Shown: positions 36,239-55,000 of the stretch, piece by piece
Numbering within the stretch: the first letter of the stretch is position 1
Layout of the letters: the number at the start of each line of letters is the position of its first letter
Source: Microlunatus sp. Gsoil 973
GTDB lineage: Bacteria; Actinomycetota; Actinomycetes; Propionibacteriales; Propionibacteriaceae
Direction: 5' to 3'
DNA length: 64,000 nt
NCBI RefSeq assembly: GCF_009707365.1
Contig: NZ_CP046122.1
Span: forward strand, 3,596,001 to 3,660,000
Made by a program: the position numbers and the translations under genes
Notes under the pieces: model-generated
The model's database searches: none
Told to the model about the DNA's origin: nothing
The model's input: only the letters and a program-made list of their open reading frames with translations

Positions 36239-36278
36239 CGGGTGATGTTCTCCGTTCGATGTGGTGCAGGGGATTGTG

Positions 36279-40110: not shown

Positions 40111-41876
40111 GACTTCAGCCAGACGTTGGTCCAGTCGGCCTGTGAGCCGATCGGATAGATCTGGTAGTTCTGCACCCGCTCGGAGTAGTAGAGCACCGAC
40201 TTTCGCGCGTACGTCGGAATGATCGGCGGGTCGGCCATCACCTTCTCGTCGACCTGTTCCCACAGCTTGCCGCTCTCTGCGGCATCGGTGGTCGCCAGCG
40301 CCTTTTCGGCCAGCCTGTCGGCCGCCGGGTTGTCGTAGTTGGCGAGATTGTAGGTCTGGGGTGTGCCCTGGTAGGTGTACAGCGTGCCGAAGACGGCACG
40401 GGCCGCGCCGCCAACCCAGTCTGCCTGCCACCCAAGCATGCCGAGGTCCCAGTCGCCGGCAGCGGCTCGCTTCTTGTCGGTGATGATGTTGATCAGATCG
40501 ACGGGGTTCTCCGGGATGAGCTTCACGGTGACGCCCGCTTTGGCGAAGGAAGCCTGCAGGATCTGCACCAGCGACGGGTTCGGCTCGGCGGTGCTGTACG
40601 GCAGCTTCAGGGTCAGGCCGTTCGGGTAGCCGGCCTCCGCCAACAGCTGCTTGGCCTTGGCAGGATCACCGGCATCGTTCGGTGACGGGTAGGGCGAGAA
40701 GTCGTGATAGCCGTTGATGCCCGGGCCGAGAATCCCGTGCTGTGGGGACGCGGCGACCGTTCCGCCGAGTTGCTGCACCAGGGATTTCTTGTCGACCGCG
40801 TACTCGAGGGCCTGGCGGACCTTCACCTTCTTCAGGGCACCACCGTTGTTGTCGGACAGTTGGTTGAACCAGATGAATGACGTCGCCCCGGTGTCGAAGG
40901 TGACCAGATGATCATCTTTGGCGGCGCTGAGCTGCTGCAGGGTCGCCGCCGGCATGCTGATGTCGTAGGTCAGATCGGCGTCGCCGGACTGCAGTTGTTG
41001 CATGGCGGCCTGCGGTGTGACGCCTTGGGTGATGTGGATCTTGTCGACGTACGCCGCCCGGAGTGGGTCGGTACTGGCCTTCCAGGCCTTGTTCCGGACC
41101 AGGGTCAGCTCCTGGTTGGGCGAATAGGAGCCGACCGTGTACGGGCCGCTGGCGACGAAGTTCCGCTTGTAGTCGACGGAGTCGGGCAGGTACGCCAACG
41201 CCTCGACCGGCTGAGGGGCGGTCGCCGGAAGGGTCATCATGTAGTTGAAGTCTCCGGCCGGTTTCACCAGGTGCACGACGACGGTCTTCGGATCGGAGGT
41301 GTCGATGCCGGAGATGGCGTTGCTGCCAAAGAATTTCTTGATCGCCGGGGCTGTCGGATCGATCTTGGCGAACTTGGCACAGAAGCCGGCCATACCCTTG
41401 ATCAGATCCAGCACGTAGCCCAGCCGGGGTGAGGCCATGTACGGGTTGCACATCAGGCCAACGCCGCGCGCGAAGTCGGCCGAGGTGATCTGGCGCGGGC
41501 CACCCGGCGCGTCCCAGGCCACCCCCTCCCTGATCTTGTAGATATACGTGCGACCGCTGTCGGTCGGTGTCGGCACCTGGGTGGCAAGATCAGGTTGCAG
41601 CTTGTTCCTGCTGGCTATGTCCATCGCGGACTTATAGCCGAGCAGTGAGCGGGTGATCGCGTGTTGCACATTGTTTCCTGCGATCGAGCCGCCCTGGGTT
41701 GGATCGATGTGATCGACATCGGCGGTGGCGAGGATCTGCAGGCTTCCGCCTCGGGTCGGTGTGCCCGAATTGGTCGACGCGGACGCCGAACCCTTTTCGG
41801 AGCACCCGGTCAAGGCAAGTGTGGCCGCCAAGAGCCCGGCGGAGGCAGCCACCCAGATCGGACGAGCAGAGGTCAT
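40107..41876 (-). CDS. ABC transporter substrate-binding lipoprotein, family 5 (DppA/OppA-like)
   Basis: 589 aa. ATG 41876 follows AGGGGAG; the open frame upstream is not needed. The signal peptide ends in lipobox LALTGC (Cys at about 26). The family 5 signature is TRGGSLQILATADVDHIDP near residue 45, with CNPYMASPRLGYVLDLIKG and the typical LVRNKAWKASTDPLRAAYVD. Family members bind peptides, nickel chelates, glycosides or opines. The linked acetamidase hints at an amide-bearing ligand. First gene of a five-gene operon with a palindrome upstream. Confidence 0.93.
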   Translation of the reverse strand: MTSARPIWVAASAGLLAATLALTGCSEKGSASASTNSGTPTRGGSLQILATADVDHIDPTQGGSIAGNNVQHAITRSLLGYKSAMDIASRNKLQPDLATQVPTPTDSGRTYIYKIREGVAWDAPGGPRQITSADFARGVGLMCNPYMASPRLGYVLDLIKGMAGFCAKFAKIDPTAPAIKKFFGSNAISGIDTSDPKTVVVHLVKPAGDFNYMMTLPATAPQPVEALAYLPDSVDYKRNFVASGPYTVGSYSPNQELTLVRNKAWKASTDPLRAAYVDKIHITQGVTPQAAMQQLQSGDADLTYDISMPAATLQQLSAAKDDHLVTFDTGATSFIWFNQLSDNNGGALKKVKVRQALEYAVDKKSLVQQLGGTVAASPQHGILGPGINGYHDFSPYPSPNDAGDPAKAKQLLAEAGYPNGLTLKLPYSTAEPNPSLVQILQASFAKAGVTVKLIPENPVDLINIITDKKRAAAGDWDLGMLGWQADWVGGAARAVFGTLYTYQGTPQTYNLANYDNPAADRLAEKALATTDAAESGKLWEQVDEKVMADPPIIPTYARKSVLYYSERVQNYQIYPIGSQADWTNVWLKS

Positions 41877-41968
41877 GATGATCTCCCCTGGCTGAAGCTG
41901 GCGCGGCAGCGTCGACGCGACGTTCGTGGACATGAATGGCGCTTCGAGGGCGCGCCCATGAAAGTCTT

Positions 41969-42089: not shown

Positions 42090-42866
42090 TCAGTCGTCGC
42101 CGAAGCGGGCAGGTCGCTTCGCGAGGAAGGCGTCGACGCCTTCGCGGAAGTCAGCACTGCCGTACACGCGTCGGTACACGTCGTCCACATCAAGATCGCC
42201 GACGGCGCTGTCGATCCGCCGTTCGAGTTCCTTGAACGACCACAGGGATTCCGCGGAGCAGCCGCGGATCCCATCCAAGGTGGATTCCAGCGTTGTCCGG
42301 AGGTTCTCCGACGGCACGACGTCGGTGACGAAGCCCGCCTGCCGGGCGGTCTCGGCGTCGATCAGTGTTGCCGTGAGGAGCATGCGGGCCGCGACCCGGC
42401 GACCGAGCAGTGCGTACATCCGGTGCAGTGAGGTCACCGACAGGGTGTTGCCCAGGGTGCGGGCGATCGGCGAGCCGAAGCGGGCATCGGGTGTGCAGTA
42501 GACGATGTCACTGAGGGCGGCGAGCACCAGTCCACCGCCTACGCAAACGCCCTCGACGAGCGCGATCACCGGGATGCGCAGATCCAGCAGCGCCGACTGG
42601 ACCCGGGCCATGTAGTGCTCGTACTCCACGCCGAGTCGGCCGTCGGTGACCCGGATGGAGAGTTCGTTGATGTCGGTGCCGCCGGCGAAGTGGCCGTCGG
42701 CACCCCGTAGGACGAGCGCCCGCAGCCCCGGTTCCTCACCCGCCCGACGGAACGCGTCCTCCAGGGAGGCGTACATGTCGAAGGACAGCGCGTTCCGTCG
42801 GCGGGGGTTGGAGACGGTCAGCGTCCAGGTGTCGCCGGCCAGGTCTTCCAGGATCTGACCGCTCAT
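42090..42866 (-). CDS. Enoyl-CoA hydratase/isomerase family protein
   Basis: 258-aa crotonase fold. N-terminus WTLTVSNPRRRNALSFDMY. The oxyanion-hole loop HFAGGTDINEL (about residue 60) and the second loop EGVCVGGGLVLAALSDIVYC (about 105) are present. A glutamate at the usual hydratase position 144 cannot be assigned safely (segment FGSPIARTLGNTLSV), so it may be a hydratase, hydrolase or isomerase. It is the last gene of the nine-gene run under GntR control and overlaps the preceding RraA-like gene by four bases, which ties CoA-thioester chemistry to that pathway. Confidence 0.9.
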   Translation of the reverse strand: MSGQILEDLAGDTWTLTVSNPRRRNALSFDMYASLEDAFRRAGEEPGLRALVLRGADGHFAGGTDINELSIRVTDGRLGVEYEHYMARVQSALLDLRIPVIALVEGVCVGGGLVLAALSDIVYCTPDARFGSPIARTLGNTLSVTSLHRMYALLGRRVAARMLLTATLIDAETARQAGFVTDVVPSENLRTTLESTLDGIRGCSAESLWSFKELERRIDSAVGDLDVDDVYRRVYGSADFREGVDAFLAKRPARFGDD

Positions 42867-43552
42867 CGGACGGTGTCGTCGAGTTCCCAGCCCAGTTCGG
42901 CGTACATCTTGCGGCGCATCTCCTTGTCGTGTTCCTGCTCCTGGCGGGCGTACTTGGCGACCTCCTCGGCGTGCTCCTGCGGCACCACGATCACCCCGTC
43001 GCCGTCGCCGACGACGATGTCGCCCGGGTTGACCAGGACGTTGACCAGGGTGACCGGGATGTTGTGGCTCTCGTACTCCAGCCGGCCCTGGGTCATGGTC
43101 TGGTTGATGTACTGGGCGAAGACCGGGAAGCCCTGCAGGCGCACCTCGTCGGTGTCCCGGCAGCCGCCGCTGGTCACGACACCGTTGGCCTTCCTGGTCA
43201 GGAACTTCAGGGTGTTGTTGGAGCCGAGCTCACCGACACCAAGGTCGGGACTCTCGAAGACCAGCACGTCACCGGGGTTGATGTCCTCGGTGAACGGCTC
43301 GATGTGCATCGACCCGTACCAGTATTCCCTGGCCCACTTGGTGTAGTCGTCGGGAGTCATCGTCTCCGGCTGGACCCAGGACGCGCGGCCGCGGACCGTG
43401 AGCGCCGGCCCGAACATGCTGGTGCCGGGCACGACGGGACGCACCGACCGGGAGACCGTGCCCTTGCTGAACAGGCCGATCCAGTCCATGCCGTCGCGGA
43501 CGTCGGCGACCCGCAGGCCACCGTACAGCTTCTCGATGTCAGCGAAGTCCAT
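42863..43552 (-). CDS. RraA-like aldolase/decarboxylase family protein 1
   Basis: 229 aa, RraA/HMG-aldolase fold (COG0684). Landmarks: LRVADVRDGMDWIG (metal-site region), GDVLVFESPD, the active-site segment GVVTSGGCRDTDEVRL with Arg-Asp, and GDIVVGDGDGVIVVPQEHAEEVA. It keeps the G-x-R-D pattern of 4-hydroxy-4-methyl-2-oxoglutarate aldolase and oxaloacetate decarboxylases, so enzymatic activity is likely and the RNase-inhibitor role of RraA unlikely. An unusual aromatic insertion, DYTKWAREYWYGSM, precedes the active site. It stands next to a second, diverged family member. Confidence 0.85.
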   Translation of the reverse strand: MDFADIEKLYGGLRVADVRDGMDWIGLFSKGTVSRSVRPVVPGTSMFGPALTVRGRASWVQPETMTPDDYTKWAREYWYGSMHIEPFTEDINPGDVLVFESPDLGVGELGSNNTLKFLTRKANGVVTSGGCRDTDEVRLQGFPVFAQYINQTMTQGRLEYESHNIPVTLVNVLVNPGDIVVGDGDGVIVVPQEHAEEVAKYARQEQEHDKEMRRKMYAELGWELDDTVR

Positions 43553-43570
43553 GATCAGCTCACCTCGACC

Positions 43571-44332
43571 TCAGAGGTCGGCGTAGTAGGCGATGATCGC
43601 ATCGGCGTCGACCGTCGAGTCCGGAGCCTTGCCGAGCGCCTCATACTTGGCGAGCCGGGAGCGCATATCGGCCAGCATGATCGCGATCGCGTGGGTGGCG
43701 ACCTCGCGGGCAACCTGCTGCGGTACGACGACAACACCGTCGTCGTCGCAGCCGACGATGTCGCCCGGATTCACCTGGACACCGCCGCAGGCGATCGTCG
43801 TCTGCGCCTCGATTGCCTGGATCCGGCCCGGGATGATCGGCCGGCCGCGGTAGCGGGACACGACCGGCGTCCGCTGCAGGGCCAGTTCGGCGGTGTCGCG
43901 GGCGTACCCGTCGGTGATGATGCCCACGGCACCGTTGAGGACGGCGCCCATGGCGTTCTCCGAGCCCCAGAAGCCGACCTCGGGGCCACCGCCGGAATCC
44001 ATCACGATCACATGCCCCGGCTTGAGATCATCGGGCAGCCGCGCAGGCGGATTCTCCTTGAACCAGATGCCGTGGGCCCGCACGATGTCTTCGGTCGTGT
44101 CGAGTTTCCACATCGGCTTGTTGGACGGAACGCAGCGGATGGTCGCCGCCTCTCCCCAGAACTTCATCCCCAGCCAGAGTGGGCGGATCTCCTTGTCCAT
44201 CAGGCCGATGTTGAAATACCCGATGCCGTCCATGGCGTCGACCACGTCGACGACGCGGAGCGGCTGATAGAGGCTGGCCAGGTTGTCCGGATCAGCCTTG
44301 GTGAAGGTGGTCCTTGGGGCGGTTGTGGTCAC
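43571..44332 (-). CDS. RraA-like aldolase/decarboxylase family protein 2
   Basis: 253 aa, same fold as the neighbour: LRVVDVVDAMDGIGYF, GHVIVMDSGGGPEVGFWG, active-site segment GIITDGYARDTAELAL with Arg-Asp, and GDIVGCDDDGVVVVPQQVA. The N-terminus is longer and carries LYQPLRVVDV. The two copies are clearly diverged, so this is not a recent duplication. Separate substrates, successive steps or a mixed oligomer are all possible. 18 bp separate the two genes. Likely reaction: retro-aldol cleavage or decarboxylation of a 2-oxo acid; inferred from family. Confidence 0.85.
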   Translation of the reverse strand: MTTTAPRTTFTKADPDNLASLYQPLRVVDVVDAMDGIGYFNIGLMDKEIRPLWLGMKFWGEAATIRCVPSNKPMWKLDTTEDIVRAHGIWFKENPPARLPDDLKPGHVIVMDSGGGPEVGFWGSENAMGAVLNGAVGIITDGYARDTAELALQRTPVVSRYRGRPIIPGRIQAIEAQTTIACGGVQVNPGDIVGCDDDGVVVVPQQVAREVATHAIAIMLADMRSRLAKYEALGKAPDSTVDADAIIAYYADL

Positions 44333-44381
44333 GGTCTCTCCTTTTGTTGTGGCGTGACTCGTTCTGATTCAGGGAGGTGAT

Positions 44382-45275
44382 TCAAGGGTGTGCTGTGGCG
44401 TTCCGATCAGCCGGCCGCTCGCCGACCGAGCCACTCGGGTCGAGCCCGTAGACCCGGACTGCGGTGCCGCCGACGACCGCAGCTCGTTCGTCATCGGTCG
44501 CCAGGTGGTCGTAGAGCAACAACCGGACGTCGTTCCAGGCCGAGGCGTACGAGGCGCGCAGCAGTACGACCGGCCAGTTGCTGCCCAGCAGCAGCCGGTC
44601 GGCTCCGAACTGATCGACGGCGTGGGCGACGTACCGGTCGAGTTCGGCCGGGTCCCAGGCCGTCCAGGCGGTGAGGGCGTCGATGCCGACCGAGACCTTG
44701 AGGGCCACCGCCGGTGATTGGGCGAGCTCTGCCAGGTGGTCGGCCCACGGACTCCACCCGCCGGTGTCCAGTGGTGGCCTTCCGAGGTGATCGACGACGA
44801 TCTTCAATTCGGGTACGAGTCGGGCGAGCTTGATCACCTGAGCGGTCTGTGCTGCGGTGATCGGTACGACGTCCCAGACGAGCCCGCGCCGTGCGATCTC
44901 CTCGAACAGTCGCAACGCGGGCGGTTCGGTCAACCAGGCCAGCGGGTCCTCGGCGATCAGGCAGCGGACTCCGCACAGCCGCTCGATGCGCACCCGGTCG
45001 AGTTCGACGAGCGCCGCTTCGGGCTCCTTGATCGGCATCCACGCGACCACGCCGGCGACGCTCGCGTGGGCGGCGAAGTCCGCGAGGCGGTCGTTCTCGG
45101 CGGGCTCGTCGACCGACTGCATCAGTACCGTTCCGTCGACGCCCACCTGCCGCAGCTCGGGGTCCAGGTCATCGGGGAGGTAGTCACGCTCCAGCAGGCG
45201 GTGGGCGCTGGTGCGCCAGGACTGTTCCTGGGCGGCGGTCCGCCAGAAGTGCTGATGGGCGTCGATGGTGACCAT
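44382..45275 (-). CDS. Amidohydrolase family 2 protein, L-fuconolactonase-like (COG3618)
   Basis: 297-aa TIM-barrel hydrolase. Metal/active-site landmarks: TIDAHQHFWRTAAQ at the N-terminus, VDHLGRPPLDTGGW (about 165-178) and LLGSNWPVVLL (about 235). This combination is typical of sugar-lactonases (L-fuconolactonase, L-rhamnono-lactonase) and 2-pyrone-4,6-dicarboxylate lactonase. In this operon it probably opens a lactone before dehydration or aldol cleavage. 21 bp separate it from the CoA-transferase gene. Confidence 0.88.
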   Translation of the reverse strand: MVTIDAHQHFWRTAAQEQSWRTSAHRLLERDYLPDDLDPELRQVGVDGTVLMQSVDEPAENDRLADFAAHASVAGVVAWMPIKEPEAALVELDRVRIERLCGVRCLIAEDPLAWLTEPPALRLFEEIARRGLVWDVVPITAAQTAQVIKLARLVPELKIVVDHLGRPPLDTGGWSPWADHLAELAQSPAVALKVSVGIDALTAWTAWDPAELDRYVAHAVDQFGADRLLLGSNWPVVLLRASYASAWNDVRLLLYDHLATDDERAAVVGGTAVRVYGLDPSGSVGERPADRNATAHP

Positions 45276-45296
45276 GGGGTGGTGCTTCCGTTCGGT

Positions 45297-46508
45297 CTAG
45301 TCGCCGGCTCGGCCGGTCTGGTGATCGGTCAGGTCGTGCAGAACTTCTTCGGTGTGTTCACCGAGCAGCGGAGGCGGTGACGGATGGCTGCTCACCGGAG
45401 TGCCGCGGAGTTTGAGGGGAGAGCCGAGGGCATAGGTGGTGCCCTCGACCGGATGATCGAAGCTGATCACCATCTCCCGGGCACGGGTGTGTGGATCGCT
45501 GGTCAGCACCTGCTGATAGTCCCGGATCGGTCCGGCCGGCACACCGGCGGCGAGCAGGTCCTCGACCCACTCGTCGGTCGTCCGGGTCCGGAAGCGCGCT
45601 TGCAGCTCCGCGGCCAGGATCTCCCGGTTGGTCAGCCGGGCGTCATTGTCGATGAAGCGCGGATCGGCGATCAGGTCAGGCGCGTCGAGAACATCGCACA
45701 GGATCCGCCAGAACTTCTCGTTGTTGGCGCCGATCGTGAGGTAACCGTCCTTGGTGGCCAGTGCCTGGTACGGGGCAGACATCCGGTTCGCCGAGCCGAT
45801 CGGCTGAGGGCTCTTGCCGGTGGACCAGAACTCGGTGGACTCCCACACCGACATCGCCAGCGCCGCCTCGAACAGCGACGTCTCCACGTACTGTCCGTCA
45901 CCGGTTCGCCCGCGAGCGACGACAGCGCCCAGGATTGCGATGGTCAGAAACATGCCCGCCCCCAGGTCGGCGATCGGGATGGCGGACTTGATCGGCGCGC
46001 GGCCCGGCTCGCCCATCACGCTCATCACACCGGTCATCGCCTGGGCGATCAGGTCGTAGCCGGGGTAGTTGGCGTACGGTCCGGTCTGCCCGAAGCCGGA
46101 GATGCTGGCGTAGATGATCTTGGGGTTGACCGCCCGGACCGCGTCATAGTCGACGCCGAGTCGGGTGGTCGTACCCGGACGGAAGTTCTCGACGACGATG
46201 TCGGCGGAGCGCACGAGCTCGAAGAACCGATCGCGCCCGGCGTCGGCCTTGAGGTCGAGGACGACACTGCGCTTGTTGCGATTGAGCGACAGGAAGGCCC
46301 GGCTGTCCTCGCCGATCACCGAATAGCCCCACGACCTGCGGCTCTGGTCGCCGGCGTCGGGGCTTTCGATCTTGATCACATCCGCGCCGAGGTCGGCAAG
46401 CATCATGGTGCAGTAGGGGCCCGACATCACCTGTGACAGGTCCAGGACGCGCAGGCCCGCCAGGGCGCCCTCGTTCGTTCGGTCGGGGTCGATCTGATCT
46501 TCCGCCAT
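45297..46508 (-). CDS. CaiB/BaiF family CoA-transferase (class III)
   Basis: 403 aa. ATG 46508 (MAEDQIDPDRTNEG) follows GAGGAAC. Family features: GLRVLDLSQVMSGPYCTMMLADLGADVIKIE (spread over residues 15-46), RNKRSVVLDLKADAGR, IVENFRPGTTTRLGVDY, and IPIADLGAGMFLTIAIL with the probable nucleophilic Asp. It transfers CoA from an acyl-CoA donor to a carboxylic acid. With the enoyl-CoA hydratase four genes on, it implies that the pathway passes through a CoA thioester. Confidence 0.93.
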   Translation of the reverse strand: MAEDQIDPDRTNEGALAGLRVLDLSQVMSGPYCTMMLADLGADVIKIESPDAGDQSRRSWGYSVIGEDSRAFLSLNRNKRSVVLDLKADAGRDRFFELVRSADIVVENFRPGTTTRLGVDYDAVRAVNPKIIYASISGFGQTGPYANYPGYDLIAQAMTGVMSVMGEPGRAPIKSAIPIADLGAGMFLTIAILGAVVARGRTGDGQYVETSLFEAALAMSVWESTEFWSTGKSPQPIGSANRMSAPYQALATKDGYLTIGANNEKFWRILCDVLDAPDLIADPRFIDNDARLTNREILAAELQARFRTRTTDEWVEDLLAAGVPAGPIRDYQQVLTSDPHTRAREMVISFDHPVEGTTYALGSPLKLRGTPVSSHPSPPPLLGEHTEEVLHDLTDHQTGRAGD

Positions 46509-46560
46509 GTTCCTCATCACTCGGCTGTCGTCCCAACAAGCTGTCCGGGAGTCGCGGGGG

Positions 46561-47877
46561 CTACTGGCCGCCCATACTGGAGTTGGCCTCCTTGAAGAAG
46601 GCCTCCACTGCTTGATCAACAGACGCCCGGCCGAACTGCACATCCTGGTAGTGCCGATCGAGGCCGGCGCTGAAGTAGGCGAAGTAGCCGGCCGGCATGA
46701 CCGGCGCCTTCACCTTTGCGTCGGTGATCTGCTTGTATTGGGAGAGGACCTGGTCAAGGCCTTTGGCTGCAGGGTTCTCGATCTGTACTTCCAGTTGGCG
46801 GGTGTTGGCCACGGCCCCGTTGTCGGAGGCGAAGATCGCCGCGCTGTCGTCGTCGTTGGTCCAAAAGTCGATGTAGGCGGCCGCCGTCGCGGTGTTCTCG
46901 GAGTTGGTCGGGATCGAGTAGCCGCTGACGAACAACGAGTTGCCCAGGCCCGCACTCCCCGACGGGAAGAGCAGGGTGGTCATCTTGTTGTCCTCGTTGG
47001 CGGCCTGGATGCCCGGCAGCGCGTTACCTGCGGTGTCTTCGGACAACACCTTGTTGAGGGTGACGTAGAACTGTTCCAGTTGATCAGGTTCGTCCGCGCT
47101 CTGCTGCGGCTTGAGCAGGTATCCGGACTTGGCGAAGCCCTGCCACATGTTCCAGTACTCGGCCAGTACCGACTTGTCGAAGGCGAGCTTGCCGTCGGCG
47201 GTGAACACGTCGTGGCCGTTGGAGATCACGTAGGCAAGAAGTCTTGCCTCACTGCCGCCCGCATCGTCGGCCGCCGGAATCCCGTCCGGCAGCTTGTCCT
47301 GCGCATCGGACAACCAGTCGGCGTACTCGTCCCAGGTGTAGCCCGTCTTCGGCAGGTCGATGCCGGCCTTCTCCGCCATCGACTGGTTCACCGTGATCGC
47401 GTTCCAGGCGCAGCCGAACGGAATCATGTACAGCGTGCCGTCCGGTCCGCGACCGTAGTCAAGAACACTCTTGGGGATGTCGTTCACCTTGATCTGGCCG
47501 GCGTCGATCAACGGCTGCAGGTTCTGCAGCACACCGTTGGCGGTGTAGTCATTGAGCTGCCGGGTCTGCATCGTCGTGACATCCGGCATCGACTGGCTCG
47601 CTGCCATGGTGTTGAGCTTGTCGAAGTAGCTCTCGAAGTCGGTCGCCGACGCCTCGACCGTAGTACCGGCGTGCGCCTTCTGGAACAGCGCGTCGATCTT
47701 GTTGTACTTGTCGACCCGGCTCGAGGAACCCCAGTAGAAGAGTTCGATCTTGCCGGTGACCTTGCCGCCGGTCTTGGTGTCGCCGGGGCTCCCGCTGCCG
47801 CTCGACGAGCAGCCCGCCAGGAGTGCTGCTGTGGCGAGTCCGCCTGCGCTGAGCAGGCTCCGCCTCGAGATTGGCAT
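46561..47877 (-). CDS. Sugar-type ABC transporter binding lipoprotein
   Basis: 438 aa. ATG 47877 (MPISRRSLLSAGGLATAAL) is preceded by AAAGGA. Twin-arginine residues occur in the leader, and the lipobox is LLAGC (Cys at about 23). A Ser/Gly linker follows, then a family 1 solute-binding domain (IELFYWGSSSRVDKYNKIDALF, GTLYMIPFGCAWNAITVNQSM). Family 1 proteins bind sugars, polyols and sugar acids. It is encoded after its permeases, an order found in some CUT1 operons. It defines the import substrate of the GntR-controlled pathway. Confidence 0.93.
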   Translation of the reverse strand: MPISRRSLLSAGGLATAALLAGCSSSGSGSPGDTKTGGKVTGKIELFYWGSSSRVDKYNKIDALFQKAHAGTTVEASATDFESYFDKLNTMAASQSMPDVTTMQTRQLNDYTANGVLQNLQPLIDAGQIKVNDIPKSVLDYGRGPDGTLYMIPFGCAWNAITVNQSMAEKAGIDLPKTGYTWDEYADWLSDAQDKLPDGIPAADDAGGSEARLLAYVISNGHDVFTADGKLAFDKSVLAEYWNMWQGFAKSGYLLKPQQSADEPDQLEQFYVTLNKVLSEDTAGNALPGIQAANEDNKMTTLLFPSGSAGLGNSLFVSGYSIPTNSENTATAAAYIDFWTNDDDSAAIFASDNGAVANTRQLEVQIENPAAKGLDQVLSQYKQITDAKVKAPVMPAGYFAYFSAGLDRHYQDVQFGRASVDQAVEAFFKEANSSMGGQ

Positions 47878-47900
47878 GTCTGGTCCTTTCGTGATGATGA

Positions 47901-48800
47901 CTACTTGAGCCCCGAGGTGGCGATCCCCTCGAGGAGCAGCCGCTGGAAAGCGATGAAGACGGCCACCAATGGCGCCAACGAGAGCGTCGCCATGGCGAAG
48001 AGCGCGCCATAGGAGGACTCTCCGCCGGTGGAGTCGAGGAAGGCGTTCAGACCGAGTGGAACGGTCCACAGATTGTTCTTGCTGAGGTAGAGCAGCGGAC
48101 CCAGGAAGTCGTTCCAGGTCCAGATGAACGTGAAGAGCGCCATCGTGCCGATCGCCGGCAGGGACAGCGGCATGATGATCCGGGTGAAGATCCCCCAGTG
48201 CCCGGCGCCGTCGATGCGGGCGGCGTAGTCGAGCTCATGGGGCAGGCTCCGGATGAACTGGACCATGAGGAAGATGAAGAATGCGTCCGTGGCGAGGAAC
48301 TTCGGCACCACCAGGGGGAGGAATGTGTTGATCCAGTGAAGCTTGTTGAACATGATGTACTGCGGCACCAGGGTGACGTGATAGGGCAGCAGCAGTGTTG
48401 CCAGCAACAGCCCGAACGCCACTCGCTTCAAGGGGAACTCCAGGCGAGCGAACGTGTACGCCGCCAGCGTGCAGGAGAACAGGTTGCCGGCAACCGACAG
48501 GGCCGCGATGATCACCGAGTTGAGGAAGTACCGGCTGAAGTTGATCGTGCCGCCGCCCTGCAGTCCGTTGACGTAGTTGGCGATCGTGAAGTTCTTCGAC
48601 CAGACGCCGAGGTGGGTGAAGATCTCGTTGTTCGGCCGGAAGGATGCCGCGAGCATCCACAGCAGCGGGTAGAGCATCAGGATCAGCACGATGATCAACA
48701 GCGAGTGCCGGATCACTCCGATCGCCACCCGGTTCCTGGCTGGTCTGATCACTCGCTGGATGGCCGGCACGGCGACGCGCGCAGAGGTAGCGGTGGTCAT
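47901..48800 (-). CDS. Sugar-type ABC transporter permease (MalG-like)
   Basis: 299 aa, six helices after a 30-residue leader; the first is SLLIIVLILMLYPLLWMLAASF. EAA loop: LDYAARIDGAGHWGIFTRIIMPL (about 190-212). C-terminal family segment: FQRLLLEGIATSGLK. Intact, unlike its partner gene upstream, from which it is separated by three bases. No ATPase gene in the operon; a shared ATPase is probable. Confidence 0.94.
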   Translation of the reverse strand: MTTATSARVAVPAIQRVIRPARNRVAIGVIRHSLLIIVLILMLYPLLWMLAASFRPNNEIFTHLGVWSKNFTIANYVNGLQGGGTINFSRYFLNSVIIAALSVAGNLFSCTLAAYTFARLEFPLKRVAFGLLLATLLLPYHVTLVPQYIMFNKLHWINTFLPLVVPKFLATDAFFIFLMVQFIRSLPHELDYAARIDGAGHWGIFTRIIMPLSLPAIGTMALFTFIWTWNDFLGPLLYLSKNNLWTVPLGLNAFLDSTGGESSYGALFAMATLSLAPLVAVFIAFQRLLLEGIATSGLK

Positions 48801-48803
48801 CGG

Positions 48804-49756
48804 TCACTCTCCGTAGTGGACCCAGTAGCGGGAGCTGAAGAACAGACCACCGGTGATCGCCGCGAGCCCGAGGACCAACAGCCAGGCCATCGCGGCGGCG
48901 TACCCCATGTTCAGTTCGGCGAAGCCCTTCTCGTAGAGATAGAGGGTGTAGAACAGGGTGCTGTCGGCGGCCCACCGCCGGTGGTCACATAGGCGCCGGT
49001 GAACGCCTGGAAGGCGTGCAGCGTGTCCATCACCACGCTGAAGAAGATCAGCGGGCTGATGCTGGGCAGCGTGATGTGCCAGAAGCGCCGCAGTCTCCCC
49101 GCCCCGTCGACGGCGGCGGCCTCGAGGAGTTCCCTCGACACCTGACGCAGACCGGCCAGGAAGATGATCATGGTCGAGCCGAACGCCCAGGCGTTGAGTG
49201 ACACGATCGTGTAGAGCGCGGTCTTCGGGTCGCCGATGAAACTGCCGTGATGGATCCCGATCTTGGCCAAGGCGTTCGGGATCAGGCCCGAGTCGCCCCA
49301 GATCATCCGCCACAGTGTGGCGATGGCGACGCTGGCTCCGAGCAGTGATGGCAGGTAGAACAAGGCACGGTAGCCCGTGATGAACCTGATCGCGGCGTTC
49401 ATCAACAGCGCAACCACCATGGAGACGACCAGGACGGTCGGCACGGAGAGCAGCACGTAGCGGATGGTGACCACGACCGAGGTCCGGAAGCGAGAGTCCG
49501 CGACGAGGTCCCCGAAGTTCTGCACACCGATGAACTGCGGCGGGCGGAGCAGGTTGTACCTGGTGAAGGCGAGGTAGAGCGAGTAGATCATCGGTCCGAG
49601 CGTCAAACCGATCATGCCGAGCAGCCAGGGCGACAAGAAGATCAGCGCAGTGCGAGCGTTGTCGCGGCGCAACGGGCTCCGGCCCCGACCGCGGGCGCCA
49701 CGCCAGTCTCCGGTCGACGTGCCGGTCAGCTGTTCGCCGAACGATGCCAGACCCAT
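48804..49756 (-). pseudogene. Sugar-type ABC transporter permease (MalF-like), frameshifted near the 3' end
   Basis: ATG 49756 overlaps the preceding dehydrogenase stop (TAATG). The first frame encodes a normal MalF-type permease through the EAA loop (ELLEAAAVDGAGRLRRFWHITLPS) to AYVTTGGGPP. The expected ending DSTLFYTLYLYEKGFAELNMGYAAAMAW... and the last helix to VHYGE lie in another frame, stopping at 48804. One missing base around 48964-48972 (gtcggcggccc) explains this. As read, the protein would lose its last helices and the importer would probably fail. A sequencing error is a serious alternative. Confidence 0.85.
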
Positions 49757-50631
49757 TACGCACCCGCCCTCTCCGCGATCGAGAGCGCACGGTCCTCAAC
49801 GGCCGGCGGCAGCACCTCGGACAACAACGTCGCCACCGGCAGCTCGATCCCCAGATCTGCGGCGGTCGTCAGGACCTCGACAAGATCCTTGGCCCAGGGC
49901 CGGTCGGCCTCGGGCACCCCGGCCGCGTTGTAGTCCAGGGCGGTGCGGTCCCAGAAGTCCAGGTTCCGGCCGACCCAGGTATCTCCCGTCGCGCTGGCGA
50001 TCGCGTCGAGTGCGGCCTCCTCGGCCACCTGGAAGGCGGCGGTCAGCTGCAAGGCTTCGTGTACCCCGGCCAGTGCGCTGAAGGCGATCAACTGGTTGGC
50101 GAGTTTCGTTGCGGACCCGGCCCCGACCGGGCCCAGCCGGAACAGCTTCGAGGCTTCGTCCTCGAGTACCGCGAGGGCGGCCTCGATGGACGGGTCATCC
50201 CCGCCGATGAAGGCACTGAGCTCTCCGCGGCGTGCCCGGTCCGAGCCGCCCGACACCGGGACCTCCAGATACGCCGCGCCGGTCGCACGCTTGATCTCCG
50301 CGGCAAGTTCACGAGCCCGGTTGGGCAGGGTCGTGCTGTGGACAATGATCAGATGATCGGGGCCGAGTCGCTGGCTCAATCCATCGGCCAGGACGGAGCG
50401 GATGCCCCGATCATCCGGCACTGCGAAGCAGACCACCGGCGTCTCGGCCAGCGCCGTGACATCTCCGACCGCCGTCGCGCCCGCGGCCACCACCGGCTCG
50501 ACTCGCTCGGGTTTGCTGTCGACCACCTGCAGTGACCAGCCGTGGTCAATGAGATTCAGCGCCATCGGTTGGCCGAGGTTGCCGAGCCCGACGAATCCCA
50601 CAGGGGTAGCACGCGTCACCGGCACCGTCAT
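49756..50631 (-). CDS. NAD(P)-dependent beta-hydroxyacid dehydrogenase (3-hydroxyisobutyrate dehydrogenase family)
   Basis: 291 aa. N-terminal Rossmann motif GFVGLGNLGQPMALNLIDHG (about 12-31). Substrate motif VPVSGGSDRARRGELSAFIGG (about 125-145). Catalytic Lys in SATKLANQLI (about 175). Members oxidise 3-hydroxyisobutyrate, tartronate semialdehyde or related hydroxyacids. It is the first gene of the nine-gene run, 142 bp from the divergent GntR start, so it is the gene most directly under the operator. Confidence 0.92.
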   Translation of the reverse strand: MTVPVTRATPVGFVGLGNLGQPMALNLIDHGWSLQVVDSKPERVEPVVAAGATAVGDVTALAETPVVCFAVPDDRGIRSVLADGLSQRLGPDHLIIVHSTTLPNRARELAAEIKRATGAAYLEVPVSGGSDRARRGELSAFIGGDDPSIEAALAVLEDEASKLFRLGPVGAGSATKLANQLIAFSALAGVHEALQLTAAFQVAEEAALDAIASATGDTWVGRNLDFWDRTALDYNAAGVPEADRPWAKDLVEVLTTAADLGIELPVATLLSEVLPPAVEDRALSIAERAGA

Positions 50632-50671
50632 GGGTCCTCCTTGACGCCCGACGAGGGAACGATCGCAGTCT

Positions 50672-50702
50672 GTTGTCTACAACTCGGTCTAATGTCTACA
50701 AC
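50672..50702. promoter_or_regulatory. Candidate GntR operators: two TGTCTACAAC direct repeats
   Basis: GTTGTCTACAAC (50672-50683) and AATGTCTACAAC (50691-50702) are 19 bp apart in the gap between the divergent dehydrogenase and GntR genes. The first half-palindromic form (TTGT..ACAA) suits FadR-subfamily GntR regulators. A third, weaker match (gatctacag) follows at 50707. Confidence 0.7.
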
Positions 50703-50773
50703 AGACGATCTACAGAAGGCAAGGTCCCCTGCTAAATTTCCTCCATTGCAGTCACGAGAGCTGAGGTGCCCCG

Positions 50774-51487
50774 ATGTCGCTTCCTGCCATGCCCGACGCC
50801 GCCCGCGAGGACGGCCGACTGCGCTCACCGAGCCTCGTCGAGTTGGCCGTCGAAGCGATCCGCAAACGGATACTCGCCGGTGACTTCGCCCCTGGTGAAC
50901 GGCTGATCGAGGAACGCCTCACCCAGGAACTCGCGATCAGCCGACCTCCGCTGCGGGAAGCGCTCAGGCTGCTGGAGAACGAAGGTCTGATCCTCACCAG
51001 GCCGCGGCGGGGATCCTTCGTGGCCACGCTGACCAGCCAGGACGTCTACGAGATCGTCACCCTCCGCTCGGCGCTGGAGAAGACAGCCTTCGAACTGGGC
51101 ATTCCGGTCCGGCATCCCGAGGTGCTGGAGCCGGCCCGGCGGGCCCTGGCGGAGATGGAGCGCTGCGCGGACGCGCAAGACCGCGGCGCTCTGGTGCTGG
51201 CCGGCTACGCCTTCCACTCGAACCTGATCAAGATCGCCGAGCACCGCCGCCTGGAGTGGATCTACGGTTCGGTCCAGCAGCAGCTCCTGCTGTGCATGTC
51301 CCGGAACCTGATCGCCCGGGAGAAGTTCTACGAGGACCTGCACGAGCACGTCGGCCGACACCGGACTCTGCTGGACCTCGTCGCGTCCGGTGACCAGGCC
51401 GCCGCTCTGGCCGAGCTCGCCGTGCACGGCGAGCGTTCGTTCATGGCAACGGCAGGCAAGCGGCCGACCGACCGAACGGCCGATTAG
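50774..51487 (+). CDS. GntR family transcriptional regulator (FadR subfamily, FCD domain)
   Basis: 237 aa. Winged helix at residues 20-90: LAVEAIRKRILAGDFAPGERLIEERLTQELAISRPPLREALRLLENEGL is spread over 26-74. The all-helical FCD effector domain follows (RSALEKTAFELG, then ligand/metal histidines in FHSNLIKIAEHRR and HEHVGRHRTLLDLVASGD). ATG 50774. It is divergent from the nine-gene catabolic run, with paired TGTCTACAAC sites in between, so it is the probable substrate-responsive repressor of that run and of itself. Confidence 0.94.
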   Translation: MSLPAMPDAAREDGRLRSPSLVELAVEAIRKRILAGDFAPGERLIEERLTQELAISRPPLREALRLLENEGLILTRPRRGSFVATLTSQDVYEIVTLRSALEKTAFELGIPVRHPEVLEPARRALAEMERCADAQDRGALVLAGYAFHSNLIKIAEHRRLEWIYGSVQQQLLLCMSRNLIAREKFYEDLHEHVGRHRTLLDLVASGDQAAALAELAVHGERSFMATAGKRPTDRTAD

Positions 51488-51523: not shown

Positions 51524-52036
51524 GTGAGATCGCCAAGCAGTCCGGGTTTCTGGGGTCGAACGCTACGGGCGGTCGGCAGGGTCATCCGTCGCACACCTGC
51601 CCAGAACACGCCAGATGGCGATCGCACCGAGATGTACGACACCAGGCGGCTCGGGCTGCCGATCCTGCAGTACGCGCCCCAGGCCGACGACCTGCCCGAC
51701 CCGGGCGAAGTGGTCTGGACCTGGGTGCCCTACGAGGAGGACCCACAGCAGGGCAAGGACCGGCCGGTGTTGGTGCTGGCCCGGACCGGCGCCTTCGTGG
51801 TCGTGGCACAGCTGACCTCGAAGGACCATGATCGGGATGCCGAGCAGGAAGCTCGCTATGGCAGGCACTGGATGGACATCGGGTCCGGGGACTGGGACAG
51901 CCGACACCGGGCCTCAGAGGTCCGACTGGACCGCCTGCTTCGGGTTCCGATGAAGGACGTCCGGCGCACCGGCGGCACCTTGGACCGGCGTCGCTATGAC
52001 GCCGTGGTCGCCGCCGTCAGGCGGTTCCATGCCTGA
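51524..52036 (+). CDS. PemK/MazF-like protein, orphan, with N-terminal extension
   Basis: 170 aa from GTG 51524. Residues 60-170 resemble the PemK/MazF growth-inhibitor fold (PGEVVWTWVPYEEDPQQGKDRPVLVL, then VVVAQLTSKDHD). MazF toxins are about 110 aa; here there is a basic leader of about 55 residues (FWGRTLRAVGRVIRRTP). No antitoxin-sized gene precedes or follows; the neighbours are GntR and a large convergent gene. It may be a solitary family member without toxin function. This class is widespread in actinobacteria. RNase activity is unproven. Confidence 0.78.
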   Translation: MRSPSSPGFWGRTLRAVGRVIRRTPAQNTPDGDRTEMYDTRRLGLPILQYAPQADDLPDPGEVVWTWVPYEEDPQQGKDRPVLVLARTGAFVVVAQLTSKDHDRDAEQEARYGRHWMDIGSGDWDSRHRASEVRLDRLLRVPMKDVRRTGGTLDRRRYDAVVAAVRRFHA

Positions 52037-52053: not shown

Positions 52054-55000
52054 TCAGTGGACCAGCTGAACCGTCGCTGACCGGCTGAGACCGCCGGAGG
52101 CGACCGTGACCTGCACCGATCCGGGTTGTACGGCATGTAGCCTGCCCGAACCACGATCGAGAACAGCAAGCGTTCCCGTCCGAGACATGGCCTTCTGCAG
52201 GTCTGCCACGGATTCGATGATCACCAGACCCGCACTCCCCGACCACACGACACTGGCCGGGAAACGCAGCGGGAAGGTCAGGCCGAACCCGGTCGTACTG
52301 CCGGTCGCCGACACGGCCGCGGAGTCCCCGACCGTGATCGCGGCCGGTGCGGTCAGCGTGATCTTGTCGATCACCGGGTTGACCTTTGCCTGCAGCCAGG
52401 TGCGGGTCTGCGGGCTGGGCTTTCCCGCAGTGATCGTTCCCGGTTCCGGGTCGACCCCGACCAGCATCCAGCCGAAGAATCCGCCGTGGTCCGGTGACGC
52501 GTACGGCGTCTTGCCGACGGCCGGAGTGGTCACCTCCAGCAGACCGTCGTCGCGGCGGACCGACGCCGTGTGAACGTGACCGGTGAACAGCGCGATGGGC
52601 TTACCGGCACGCTCCCGGAAGTCGGTGAGCCAGTTCTTGATCATCATCGCCTCGAGCTGGTCGGACAGCTGGGAGGCGCCGGCTCCGGTCGGATCGGCAA
52701 GCGGATGGTGGAAGGAGACGATCACCGACCTCAACGCAGGATCGACTGCAGCCTTGTCGAGTTCCTCACGCAACCCGATGATCTGGTCCCAGTCGGAGGT
52801 GCGGATGTCACCCGTGTGGGAGTCGAGCATGATCACCCGGGTGCCGCGGTGATCGAAGATCTGGTGGGTCGGCCGGCCGGTGGCCGCAACGAAGGCGTCC
52901 AGTCCGCCGCTCGCCGAAAGGCCCGCCTCGTGGTTGCCCGGACCCCAATAGACCGGGAGATCCGCGGGTACGTGATCTTCCAGCAACCCCAACGCCAGCT
53001 CGAAGTCGGCCGGATCGTCACCGTCGACGAAATCGCCGTTGATCAGGAGGAAGTCCGGTCCGGCGGCGACCGCCTGATCCAGCGCTATCCCGGCCTGTCG
53101 CCCGGAGAACGAATCAAGGCCCTGCGCGGCGCTGACGTGCAGATCGGACAGCACGGCGAAGGTCCAGCGTCGGGTGCCGACCGCCGAGCGTTGCTCGAGA
53201 ACGTAGGGGTCCGGGTGCGGCGGCTGGTCGTTGGGCGGCTGGTTGCCGACGAGAGCGGTCAGGCCGTCGAACAGCAGCGCACCGGAGTTCTTGTTGGTCT
53301 GCGAGGTTTCGGCGATGTAGACGCGGGTCAGGGTGATCGGCGCGGAGAAGCCGTCGGGAATGTCGCCGACCACCTGCTTCCAGCCGGTCCAGTCGACCAC
53401 CGTGGCGAAGGTGAACGGCACATTGGTGGTGCCCTGGGAGGACATCATCGCCCGCAGCCAGTGCAGCTTCCCGTCGCCCTTGACCCACAGCGACAGCTTC
53501 TTGGCGCCGGCCGGCAGGGTGATCGGTGATCCGGCAACGGCATATGCCGCTGAGGTGCTGGGCTGGCCGGTGAAGTCGTAGCTGAGTTGCAGCGCGTGGT
53601 TACCGGCCGGTGCGTCCGGCCGGTCGGTGGCGTCGACATAGGCCACCGTGGCCGAGCCGCGGGCGGCGAGTGCGGTCCAGGTCTCCTCCGGCTCGAAGTC
53701 GGCGAGCGGTTCCTCCACCCAGCCCACGACGACCGTCAACGTCGTCGACGTGCTGCCGACGGTTGCGGTCAGCGCGGTGGTGGTGCCGCCGGGAACGTCC
53801 AGGCCGCTGATCGTCAGGCCGCCGTCGTCGGCCTCAGCCACCGTGATCACGTCGTGGTCGTAGTCGAGGCCCACATCGCGGGCGGCGACTGGGGCGCCGA
53901 AGCCGTCGGCGTCGACACCGGTGAGGCCGACCGATGCGCTGCCTTTGGTGTCGATGGTGATCACGGTGTCGGTGAACATCAGATGATCGAGTTCGCCGAT
54001 CACCCGGATCGGATGCCTGCCGTGTGCCGCACCGGAGGACGCATGCAGCGACCCGGCGCCTGGTTGTCCGGCGTGCAGGAGGCCCTCGTGGACGGTGCCG
54101 AGCTTGGGCGGGACGACGCTCCAGTCGACCTTCTCCACCTCGACCGGCGCCCACGCCTCGTCGTATCCGGCGGCCACGAGCGTCAGCGTCAGCCCCGGAA
54201 CAACGCGATCGGCCTGCGGCCGCAGATCAAGGCCACGAAGCCGCCCGGACCCTCTGGCACCGAACAGGCCGACGCCGTCGGCGATCAGCCGCTCGTTGCC
54301 GTCCGACGGTGTGTTGGTCACGGTCACCTTCCGGTCGCCGGGATGCCGGGCAACCATTTCGGTGGACCCGCCGCCGTCCAACATGAACGCGCTGTCCGCG
54401 CCGAGCCGGACCATCAACTTCGCAGTGTCATCGAAGCTCAGCCCGGTGGAGAAGTTGGCACCCCCGTCGATCGCGACCAGCAGGACTCGGTCGCCCGATG
54501 CCGGCCAGCCGATCGCCGACCGCGGCTTGGGTTCGTCGTTGCCGGTGCTGGGCGGGAAGTCCACGGGTCGGCCGTTCGTGACCAGGACCGCCCCACTGCC
54601 CAGTGCCATCCGAAGGCCGACCGGTGAGTCGGTTCTGGCGGCGTACGAGACGGCAACCGGATCGCCGACCCTGGCCGCGGCGAGCCGATCCGCGCCGGTT
54701 CCGGTGCCGATGACGACCAATCCATCGTCCGGGACCGGTTCCTCGGTGATCTTGCCGCTGATCCCACTGACCGTGCCGTTCTTGACGATCAGTTCGGTGT
54801 ACGGGCCCGTGCCCTGCAGCAATGAACGGGACGCGTCACCCCACAGCGGGGTGAAGATCGCGACTCCGTCCATCGGTAGGGCGACGGTGTTGACCGCGGC
54901 CAGCGGGCACCGCACGCCTGCGACGGTGATCGTTCCGTCGAGCACGAGATCGGCGATCCGGGCGATCCGGTCGACGCCGACCGTCGCCACCGTGGCGTGC

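What the first reader, a model, noticed from the sequence alone, without database searches (positions are those of the whole stretch)
42090..51487. Nine-gene GntR-controlled catabolic system without a recognised counterpart
The order is beta-hydroxyacid dehydrogenase, sugar-type importer, class III CoA-transferase, COG3618 lactonase, two diverged RraA-like aldolases and enoyl-CoA hydratase. A lactonase and RraA-type aldolases point to a sugar acid or branched 2-oxo acid. The CoA-transferase and hydratase point to a thioester stage. I know no named pathway joining all of these. A route might be import of a polyol or sugar acid, oxidation, lactone opening, aldol cleavage, and CoA activation of one fragment.
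Basis: partly seen in the sequence, partly recalled or inferred. Interest (0 to 1): 0.7.

Follow-up and report, generated by a model that had tools for sequence, protein, structure and literature searches.

The report
Widespread uncharacterised sugar-acid catabolic regulon
An actinobacterium carries a gene set, found in similar form in many unrelated bacteria and marked in its relatives by one shared DNA signal, that probably imports and breaks down an acidic sugar by a route that has no name yet.

Summary
The gene set is real: nine closely packed minus-strand genes plus a divergent GntR/FCD regulator (ten in all). None of the ten proteins reaches the cut-off of any NCBIfam family shown. It is not a one-off. 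Of 80 relatives of the first RraA protein, 24 have matches to all eight other core families nearby and 31 to at least five. They lie in Actinobacteria, Devosia-type Alphaproteobacteria and Burkholderiales; two Microvirga plasmids have compact versions.

In all 24 actinobacterial promoters scanned, TTGTAGACAA or a 9-of-10 match lies beside the regulator gene. The own genome has three exact copies; the two elsewhere lie inside genes. In a congener another copy precedes a separate RraA2-crotonase unit. In another actinobacterium an RraA2-type gene takes the place of RraA1.

Best reading: import of a sugar acid or uronide, lactone opening, a CoA-transferase/crotonase thioester step, aldol cleavage by RraA, and semialdehyde reduction. 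Conservation and the shared site are shown; substrate and reactions are inferred.

The parts
50774..51487 (+). GntR-family regulator with FCD ligand domain, divergent from the operon
   Evidence: Pfam GntR 60.3 bits, FCD 57.1 bits; same divergent position in most complete actinobacterial relatives
50673..50682 (.). Operator-like site TTGTAGACAA in the divergent promoter
   Evidence: expected by chance in the window 0.01
50692..50701 (.). Second copy of the operator-like site, one mismatch (TTGTAGACAT on the minus strand)
   Evidence: placed from the sequence
49756..50631 (-). Beta-hydroxyacid (3-hydroxyisobutyrate/tartronate-semialdehyde type) dehydrogenase
   Evidence: Pfam NAD_binding_2 117.8 bits; best NCBIfam 2-hydroxy-3-oxopropionate reductase 134.8 bits, cut-off 397; SGG and K-x2-NQ motifs kept
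48804..49756 (-). CUT1-type permease 1, interrupted by a frameshift near 48968
47901..48800 (-). CUT1-type permease 2
   Evidence: Pfam BPD_transp_1 66.6 bits
46561..47877 (-). Solute-binding lipoprotein, nearest solved relatives YesO (rhamnogalacturonan oligosaccharide)
45297..46508 (-). Class III CoA-transferase
   Evidence: Pfam CoA_transf_3 442.1 bits; PDB relatives
44382..45275 (-). Amidohydro_2/COG3618-type putative lactonase; GSNWPV where 4dlf has GSDWPV
43571..44332 (-). RraA1, core RraA-type putative class II pyruvate aldolase
   Evidence: Pfam RraA-like 96.7 bits; R145-D146 invariant, E149 in 90% or more of rows
42863..43552 (-). RraA2, second RraA-type protein, 35% identical to RraA1
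   Evidence: Pfam 83.6 bits; tree and identities
42090..42866 (-). Crotonase-fold protein annotated enoyl-CoA hydratase, without the two catalytic glutamates
   Evidence: model pLDDT 93.1

Best explanation
A locally regulated catabolic operon for an acidic sugar (aldonate, aldarate or uronide type). Shown: gene content, recurrence across phyla, a shared operator-like site in Actinobacteria, and an RraA2-type gene in the RraA1 slot of one relative. Inferred: (1) the YesO-like binding protein and CUT1 permeases import the solute, with an ATPase encoded elsewhere in this genome; (2) the COG3618 protein opens a lactone; (3) the class III CoA-transferase and the glutamate-less crotonase form one step in which CoA is swapped onto the sugar acid, the thioester eases a proton abstraction (dehydration, epimerisation or decarboxylation), and CoA is passed on, working like carnitine CaiB/CaiD; this would replace the enolase or IlvD-type sugar-acid dehydratase that the window operon lacks; (4) RraA1, or RraA2, cleaves a 4-hydroxy-2-oxo acid into pyruvate and an aldehyde or semialdehyde; (5) the beta-hydroxyacid dehydrogenase reduces the semialdehyde to a glycerate-like acid, as GarR does. 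The GntR/FCD protein represses the operon at TTGTAGACAA until an intermediate binds it.
For: 24 of 80 RraA1 relatives have matches to all eight companions, 31 of 80 to at least five; where the CoA-transferase occurs the crotonase occurs in 30 of 31 loci. Compact operons with these families lie on two Microvirga plasmids (annotated, with a UgpC ATPase, by tblastn, for the second). The operator-like site is found in 24 of 24 actinobacterial promoters, 21 with all ten bases and 3 with nine; further copies precede detached RraA units in L146 and L049; of three exact copies in the own genome the two elsewhere lie inside genes. RraA catalytic Arg-Asp are invariant in 38 of 38 aligned rows. The dehydrogenase is closest to GarR-type reductases. 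The binding protein's Foldseek matches include YesO entries at ranks 1, 3 and 4, and R54 and R106 are invariant in 24 of 24 aligned rows. Extra partners in some loci, a FAH-family protein related to 2-keto-3-deoxy-D-arabinonate dehydratase (12 of 80) and a D-2-hydroxyacid dehydrogenase (11 of 80), belong to families that act on such acids.
Against: No substrate was identified. The lactonase Asp is replaced by Asn in the window and 19 of 19 actinobacterial rows, so lactone hydrolysis may not be its reaction. The crotonase active site is unexplained, and CaiD-like dehydration is not supported by residues. In Microvirga ossetica a mandelate racemase/muconate-lactonizing-type gene lies about 0.9 kb beyond the crotonase gene, and MR_MLE proteins were 3 of the 92 RraA1 neighbours scanned in other phyla, so an ordinary enolase-type dehydratase may serve the route; the own genome was not searched for one. 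Outside Actinobacteria the match is at family level: in Devosia-type loci the amidohydrolase is 24-26% and the dehydrogenase 27-35% identical. YesO similarity is 21-22% and many sugar-binding proteins follow closely. 34 of 80 RraA1 relatives have none of the companions. The three Burkholderiales loci with at least five companions lack a matching binding protein and regulator. Genome-wide the ten-base site is not enriched: 3 copies against 6 of the reversed control in the own genome and 3 against 5 in G520. 9 of 11 non-actinobacterial promoters lack it. The FAH homologue of this genome lies elsewhere, with no site in the stretch examined. The first permease is frameshifted, so import may be broken in this strain.
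Confidence: 0.5

Rival explanations
1. The operon degrades a branched hydroxy acid of the 3-hydroxy-3-methylglutarate or 4-hydroxy-4-methyl-2-oxoglutarate kind: CoA activation by a SUGCT-like transferase, a crotonase step, and cleavage by an HMG/CHA-type aldolase.
For: CoA-transferase relatives include succinate-hydroxymethylglutarate CoA-transferase (9br6, 275.8 bits); the best PDB match of RraA2 is the HMG/CHA aldolase 3noj; TctC receptor genes occur near Burkholderiales copies L106, L109 and L113.
Against: Sugar-type importer in the complete actinobacterial, Devosia-type and Microvirga loci; the crotonase lacks the glutamates a hydratase needs; none of the ten operon proteins is of an HMG-CoA lyase type.
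Confidence: 0.15
2. Two linked but separate functions: an aldolase-dehydrogenase-lactonase branch for the imported solute and a CoA-transferase-crotonase branch that salvages or detoxifies an acid by-product.
For: In Devosia-type loci the CoA-transferase/crotonase pair is a separate divergent unit; 49 of 80 RraA1 relatives have no CoA-transferase match above 150 bits in the fetched stretch.
Against: In the window, in most complete actinobacterial loci and in Microvirga ossetica they lie in one run on one strand, with a shared site beside the regulator in Actinobacteria.
Confidence: 0.2
3. Degradation of a branched sugar such as apiose or its acid.
For: An apiosidase-like hydrolase (PF13204 in the one member scanned) forms a cluster with members in 8 loci, those listed being of the Devosia type; RraA enzymes are known for tertiary-alcohol substrates (recalled).
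Against: PF13204 is a broad family (recalled); no such protein is among the ten of the window operon; that cluster has no member in the actinobacterial loci listed, though their other flanking genes were mostly not scanned; none is named in the Microvirga table.
Confidence: 0.1

Closest known systems
Carnitine CaiB/CaiD (CoA-transferase plus crotonase); described from memory
   Same: A class III CoA-transferase paired with a crotonase-fold protein (30 of 31 loci).
   Different: The CoA-transferase scores 113.1 bits with the carnitine model (cut-off 413); the crotonase active site differs; sugar-type importer and RraA protein are present.
Glucarate/galactarate pathway (GarL aldolase, GarR reductase); described from memory
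   Same: Pyruvate-type aldolase followed by a GarR-like reductase would give the same kind of products.
   Different: RraA-type instead of HpaI-type aldolase; no enolase-family dehydratase among the ten proteins; the dehydrogenase is below the GarR cut-off (134.8 against 397).
Protocatechuate 4,5-cleavage (LigI lactonase, LigK aldolase); described from memory
   Same: COG3618-type lactonase and RraA-type aldolase families.
   Different: No ring-cleavage or Lig hydratase protein among the ten; RraA1 and RraA2 below the LigK cut-off (65.6 and 84.0 against 304.5).
L-fucose/L-rhamnose oxidative route (fuconolactonase, 4dlf); described from memory
   Same: Lactonase family: NCBIfam fuconolactonase 159.5 bits; 4dlf best PDB match.
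   Different: Below the cut-off of 400; Asn where 4dlf has Asp in GSDWPV; no sugar dehydrogenase or IlvD-type dehydratase among the ten.

Membership tests
HMG/CHA (LigK-type) aldolase | Catalytic Arg followed by metal-binding Asp | tested here: met
   R145-D146 invariant in alignment A3, 38 of 38 rows; roles of Arg-123 and Asp-124 from passages of PMC5065237
HMG/CHA (LigK-type) aldolase | Asp at the D-x20-R-D position, or the alternative G-x20-R-D-x2-E/D motif (motifs recalled; the PMC5065237 passages say only that there are two) | tested here: inconclusive
   The D/G position is Ser in RraA1 and RraA2; both have R-D-x2-E
HMG/CHA (LigK-type) aldolase | NCBIfam equivalog score | tested here: not met
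   65.6 and 84.0 bits against 304.5
Enoyl-CoA hydratase | Two catalytic glutamates (E144, E164 of the rat enzyme; positions and motif recalled, no rat row was aligned) | tested here: not met
   First absent in 24 of 26 rows, second in 26 of 26 rows of A2
Enoyl-CoA hydratase | Crotonase fold | tested here: met
   Pfam ECH_1 120.6 bits; model and Foldseek matches
Class III CoA-transferase | Family profile | tested here: met
   CoA_transf_3 442.1 bits
Class III CoA-transferase | Acidic nucleophile (Asp169 of formyl-CoA transferase, recalled) | tested here: inconclusive
   Glu in the window; Glu or Asp in relatives; the formyl-CoA transferase entry 10uh also has Glu there, 4ed9 and 4hl6 Asp, 9br6 Ser
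COG3618 lactonase (L-fucono-1,5-lactonase) | Asp in the GSDWPV motif (seen in 4dlf; its catalytic role recalled) | tested here: not met
   Asn in the window and 19 of 19 actinobacterial rows
COG3618 lactonase (L-fucono-1,5-lactonase) | Lactonase activity | not testable with these tools
   needs an enzyme assay
GarR/tartronate semialdehyde reductase | NCBIfam equivalog score | tested here: not met
   134.8 bits against 397
CUT1 sugar importer | Binding protein plus two permeases of the sugar type | tested here: met
   permease 1 frameshifted
Carnitine CaiB/CaiD system | CaiB equivalog score | tested here: not met
   113.1 bits against 413

The most novel reading that the evidence does not exclude
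A new route of sugar-acid catabolism in which a CoA-transferase and a glutamate-less crotonase do, through a recycled CoA thioester, what an enolase-type or iron-sulfur dehydratase does in known pathways, feeding an RraA-type aldolase; two distant RraA lineages can fill the aldolase slot.
Probability: 0.25. Interest if true: 0.75.

Novelty: new variant of a known kind. Interest (0 to 1): 0.5.

Why it matters
A recurrent operon with its own regulator and no assigned substrate, present in at least two phyla, is a direct target for pathway discovery. The shared site helps to define its members in Actinobacteria. RraA-like proteins occur in many genomes (139 of 396 in the phylum sample have some match), so fixing the reaction of this lineage would inform many annotations. 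If the thioester idea holds, it would be an unexpected way to process sugar acids.

Tried and rejected
Chance grouping: rejected by the recurrence of the set. A known pathway under another annotation: no protein reaches the cut-off of an NCBIfam family shown (for the crotonase the best 25 of 69 families were shown). FAH and D-2-hydroxyacid dehydrogenase as part of the window operon: not there. The FAH homologue of this genome lies at G000:C1:388707-389861 beside a DHDPS-family gene and a gene that I named aldehyde dehydrogenase by eye, with no site in the 19 kb examined. Neighbours of RraA1 in other phyla: 92 chosen neighbours of the 155 listed gave scattered families (at most 3 of 92 for any one shown), so they did not name a substrate. 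Structure of the crotonase: fold confirmed, no function singled out. Promoter and terminator scans were at chance level (1 found against 0.8 expected, 4 against 3.2). Literature: eight searches, seen as listings only, of which 27, 36, 37, 42 and 43 showed part of the papers found; passages read from PMC5065237 alone.

First-pass gene calls in the loci were polluted by antisense ORFs and were redone; some calls in that second set are still doubtful, so presence counts of the core rest on tblastn. Locus L148 is the same genome as L059, so it was left out of the operator count. The third exact copy in G520 and three of the four in G876 were not examined. No test of horizontal transfer against a species tree was made.
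Full report
WHAT IS THERE. The minus strand carries, in transcription order, a beta-hydroxyacid dehydrogenase, two sugar-type ABC permeases, a solute-binding lipoprotein, a class III CoA-transferase, a COG3618-type amidohydrolase, RraA1, RraA2 and a crotonase-fold protein; a GntR/FCD regulator is divergent. Neighbouring genes overlap or are at most 52 nt apart. Promoter-like and terminator-like signals are no more frequent than in shuffles. None of the ten proteins reaches an NCBIfam cut-off among the families shown. The window is G000:C1:3596001-3660000 of a 4.91 Mb single-contig genome.

Permease 1 changes frame near 48968. Homologues from L146, L047, L037 and L055 align in frame -1 up to that point and in frame -3 from it, losing 0, 0, 4 and 1 residues. 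Two further queries (L039, L151) were wrong-frame ORFs and are not counted. It may be a sequence error or a recent lesion.

HOW WIDESPREAD. One protein query, RraA1, brought 80 kept loci out of 87 relatives. Of these, 24 of 80 have matches to all eight of GntR, dehydrogenase, both permeases, binding protein, CoA-transferase, crotonase and amidohydrolase; 31 of 80 to at least five; 34 of 80 to none (at least 50 bits, 80 for the crotonase). The 24 are 18 actinobacterial loci (Pseudarthrobacter, Microbacterium, Kribbella, Cellulomonas, Microlunatus, Rugosimonospora, Arthrobacter, Auraticoccus and two MAGs) and 6 of the Devosia/Pelagibacterium group; in the latter the amidohydrolase and dehydrogenase are related only at family level (24-26% and 27-35% identity). 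Partial sets lie in further Devosia-like, Oceanicola, Variovorax, Ramlibacter and other Burkholderiales loci. A Microvirga ossetica plasmid has NIPSNAP and GntR divergent from dehydrogenase, amidohydrolase, RraA, importer with ATPase, CoA-transferase and crotonase in a row; a Microvirga lotononidis plasmid, unannotated, gives the same row by tblastn apart from the ATPase and NIPSNAP, which were not queried. Presence is patchy: RraA1 at E <= 1e-40 is in 5 of 147 genomes of the family and 21 of 293 of the order, the own genome included in both. In a thin sample of the phylum (396 genomes) only the own genome has a close match; the best other by E-value is 42% identical. Patchiness plus plasmid copies suggests horizontal spread (inference, not tested with a tree).

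A SHARED SITE. The divergent promoter holds TTGTAGACAA at 50673-50682 and a one-mismatch copy at 50692-50701. All 24 actinobacterial promoters scanned, the window included, have the site: 21 with all ten bases, 3 with nine. One of the 24, L152, has only part of the gene set in its 20 kb. The general form TGTNNACA is expected 0.09 times per 430 nt, counting the sites themselves. Several of the 24 are congeners and not independent. Of 11 non-actinobacterial promoters 2 have a similar palindrome (TTGTATACAA) and 9 have none, so the signal is lineage-specific. When the 23 loci other than the window were scanned over their whole length, every one had the site at this promoter; distant extra copies were seen only in L049, before a detached RraA1, and in L146, before a detached RraA2-crotonase unit. 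The fragments L036 and L149 and the stretches L125, L126 and L116 have none. The own genome has three exact copies; the two elsewhere lie inside genes, one a carbamoyl-phosphate synthase-like frame and one a sulfotransferase-like frame (names given by eye). By number alone the site is not enriched: 3 copies against 6 of the reversed control in the own genome, 3 against 5 in G520, 4 against 2 in G876. It is the position that speaks. The regulator is therefore probably local.

THE TWO RraA GENES. RraA1 and RraA2 are 35% identical and fall in separate lineages of a small tree. The 18 complete actinobacterial loci show RraA1 only within their flanks. The congener G520 has both, with RraA2 (81%) and the crotonase (66%) as a separate unit with its own site. 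In G876 of the same class an RraA2-type gene (52%; grouped with RraA2 at support 0.893) occupies the RraA slot beside the site, and the best RraA1-query matches in that genome are this gene (36%) and one partial match of 37%. Close RraA2 relatives are rare: 4 of 293 order genomes and 2 of 394 class genomes at E <= 1e-40, own included. RraA2-type genes also accompany sugar importers on Rhizobium and Mesobacillus plasmids, with no CoA-transferase annotated in those stretches. So RraA2 is an alternative or additional aldolase rather than a second core step (inference). Both keep the catalytic Arg-Asp and a following acidic residue (roles from PMC5065237 passages; the alternative motif is recalled and its Gly is Ser here).

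ACTIVE SITES. The crotonase has a confident crotonase fold (pLDDT 93.1; matches). It lacks the first hydratase glutamate in 24 of 26 and the second in 26 of 26 aligned rows, while R136, T137 and N140 are nearly invariant (glutamate positions recalled). It is unlikely to be an ordinary hydratase. The CoA-transferase has Glu at the usual Asp nucleophile position (role recalled). The amidohydrolase has GSNWPV where 4dlf has GSDWPV, and 19 of 19 actinobacterial rows have SNWPV; Devosia-type rows have SNFPV and five Burkholderiales rows SDWPV. The dehydrogenase keeps its SGG and K-x2-NQ motifs. The binding protein models well (pLDDT 86.6); YesO entries rank 1, 3 and 4 in Foldseek at 21-22% identity and YesO is first in sequence.

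MECHANISM. Family knowledge suggests uptake of a sugar acid or uronide, lactone opening, a thioester step by the CoA-transferase/crotonase pair, aldol cleavage by RraA to pyruvate and an aldehyde, and reduction by the dehydrogenase. The window operon has no enolase- or IlvD-type dehydratase, while some relatives add a FAH-family protein related to a 2-keto-3-deoxy sugar-acid dehydratase (12 of 80) and a D-2-hydroxyacid dehydrogenase (11 of 80). That leaves room for the CoA pair to act as a thioester-assisted dehydratase or epimerase, working like CaiB/CaiD. This is the most novel reading and is not shown. Against it: the missing glutamates, and in Microvirga ossetica an enolase-superfamily (mandelate racemase/muconate-lactonizing) gene about 0.9 kb past the crotonase gene, which could be the dehydratase there. 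The own genome was not searched for such genes.

VERDICT. A real, recurrent and unassigned catabolic gene set with a shared regulatory site in Actinobacteria; not unique to this genome; chemistry inferred. New variant of a known kind.

Noticed in passing
window 48804-49756, near 48968: Frameshift in the first sugar permease, absent from four homologues compared; sequence error or recent lesion.
   Followed up: partly
window 35309-41933, minus strand: Downstream, a peptide-type ABC importer operon (SBP_bac_5, two permeases, one 733-aa protein with two ABC ATPase stretches) ends in a formamidase/acetamidase-family gene; possibly an amide or peptide uptake and hydrolysis unit.
   Followed up: partly
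window 52054-55509, minus strand: 1151-aa protein joining a phosphodiester glycosidase (NAGPA) domain and a calcineurin-like phosphoesterase domain.
   Followed up: partly
window 51524-52036, plus strand: PemK/MazF-like protein beside the regulator; no partner antitoxin was looked for.
   Followed up: no
L104 (record titled Kaiparowitsia implicata): A cyanobacterial MAG contig with a Devosia-type version of the operon; possibly contamination of the assembly.
   Followed up: no
L074, L077, L083: In three MAGs titled Hebobacteria, Armatimonadota and Bacillota the RraA1 relative sits next to YidC/Jag-type housekeeping genes, so this lineage also has a stand-alone role.
   Followed up: partly
L091, L093, L094, L095, L098, L101: Devosia-group loci carry an RpiB-type isomerase next to an RraA2-type gene and an apiosidase-like hydrolase beside the operon; the RpiB-RraA pair recurs on a Rhizobium plasmid (L160).
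   Followed up: partly
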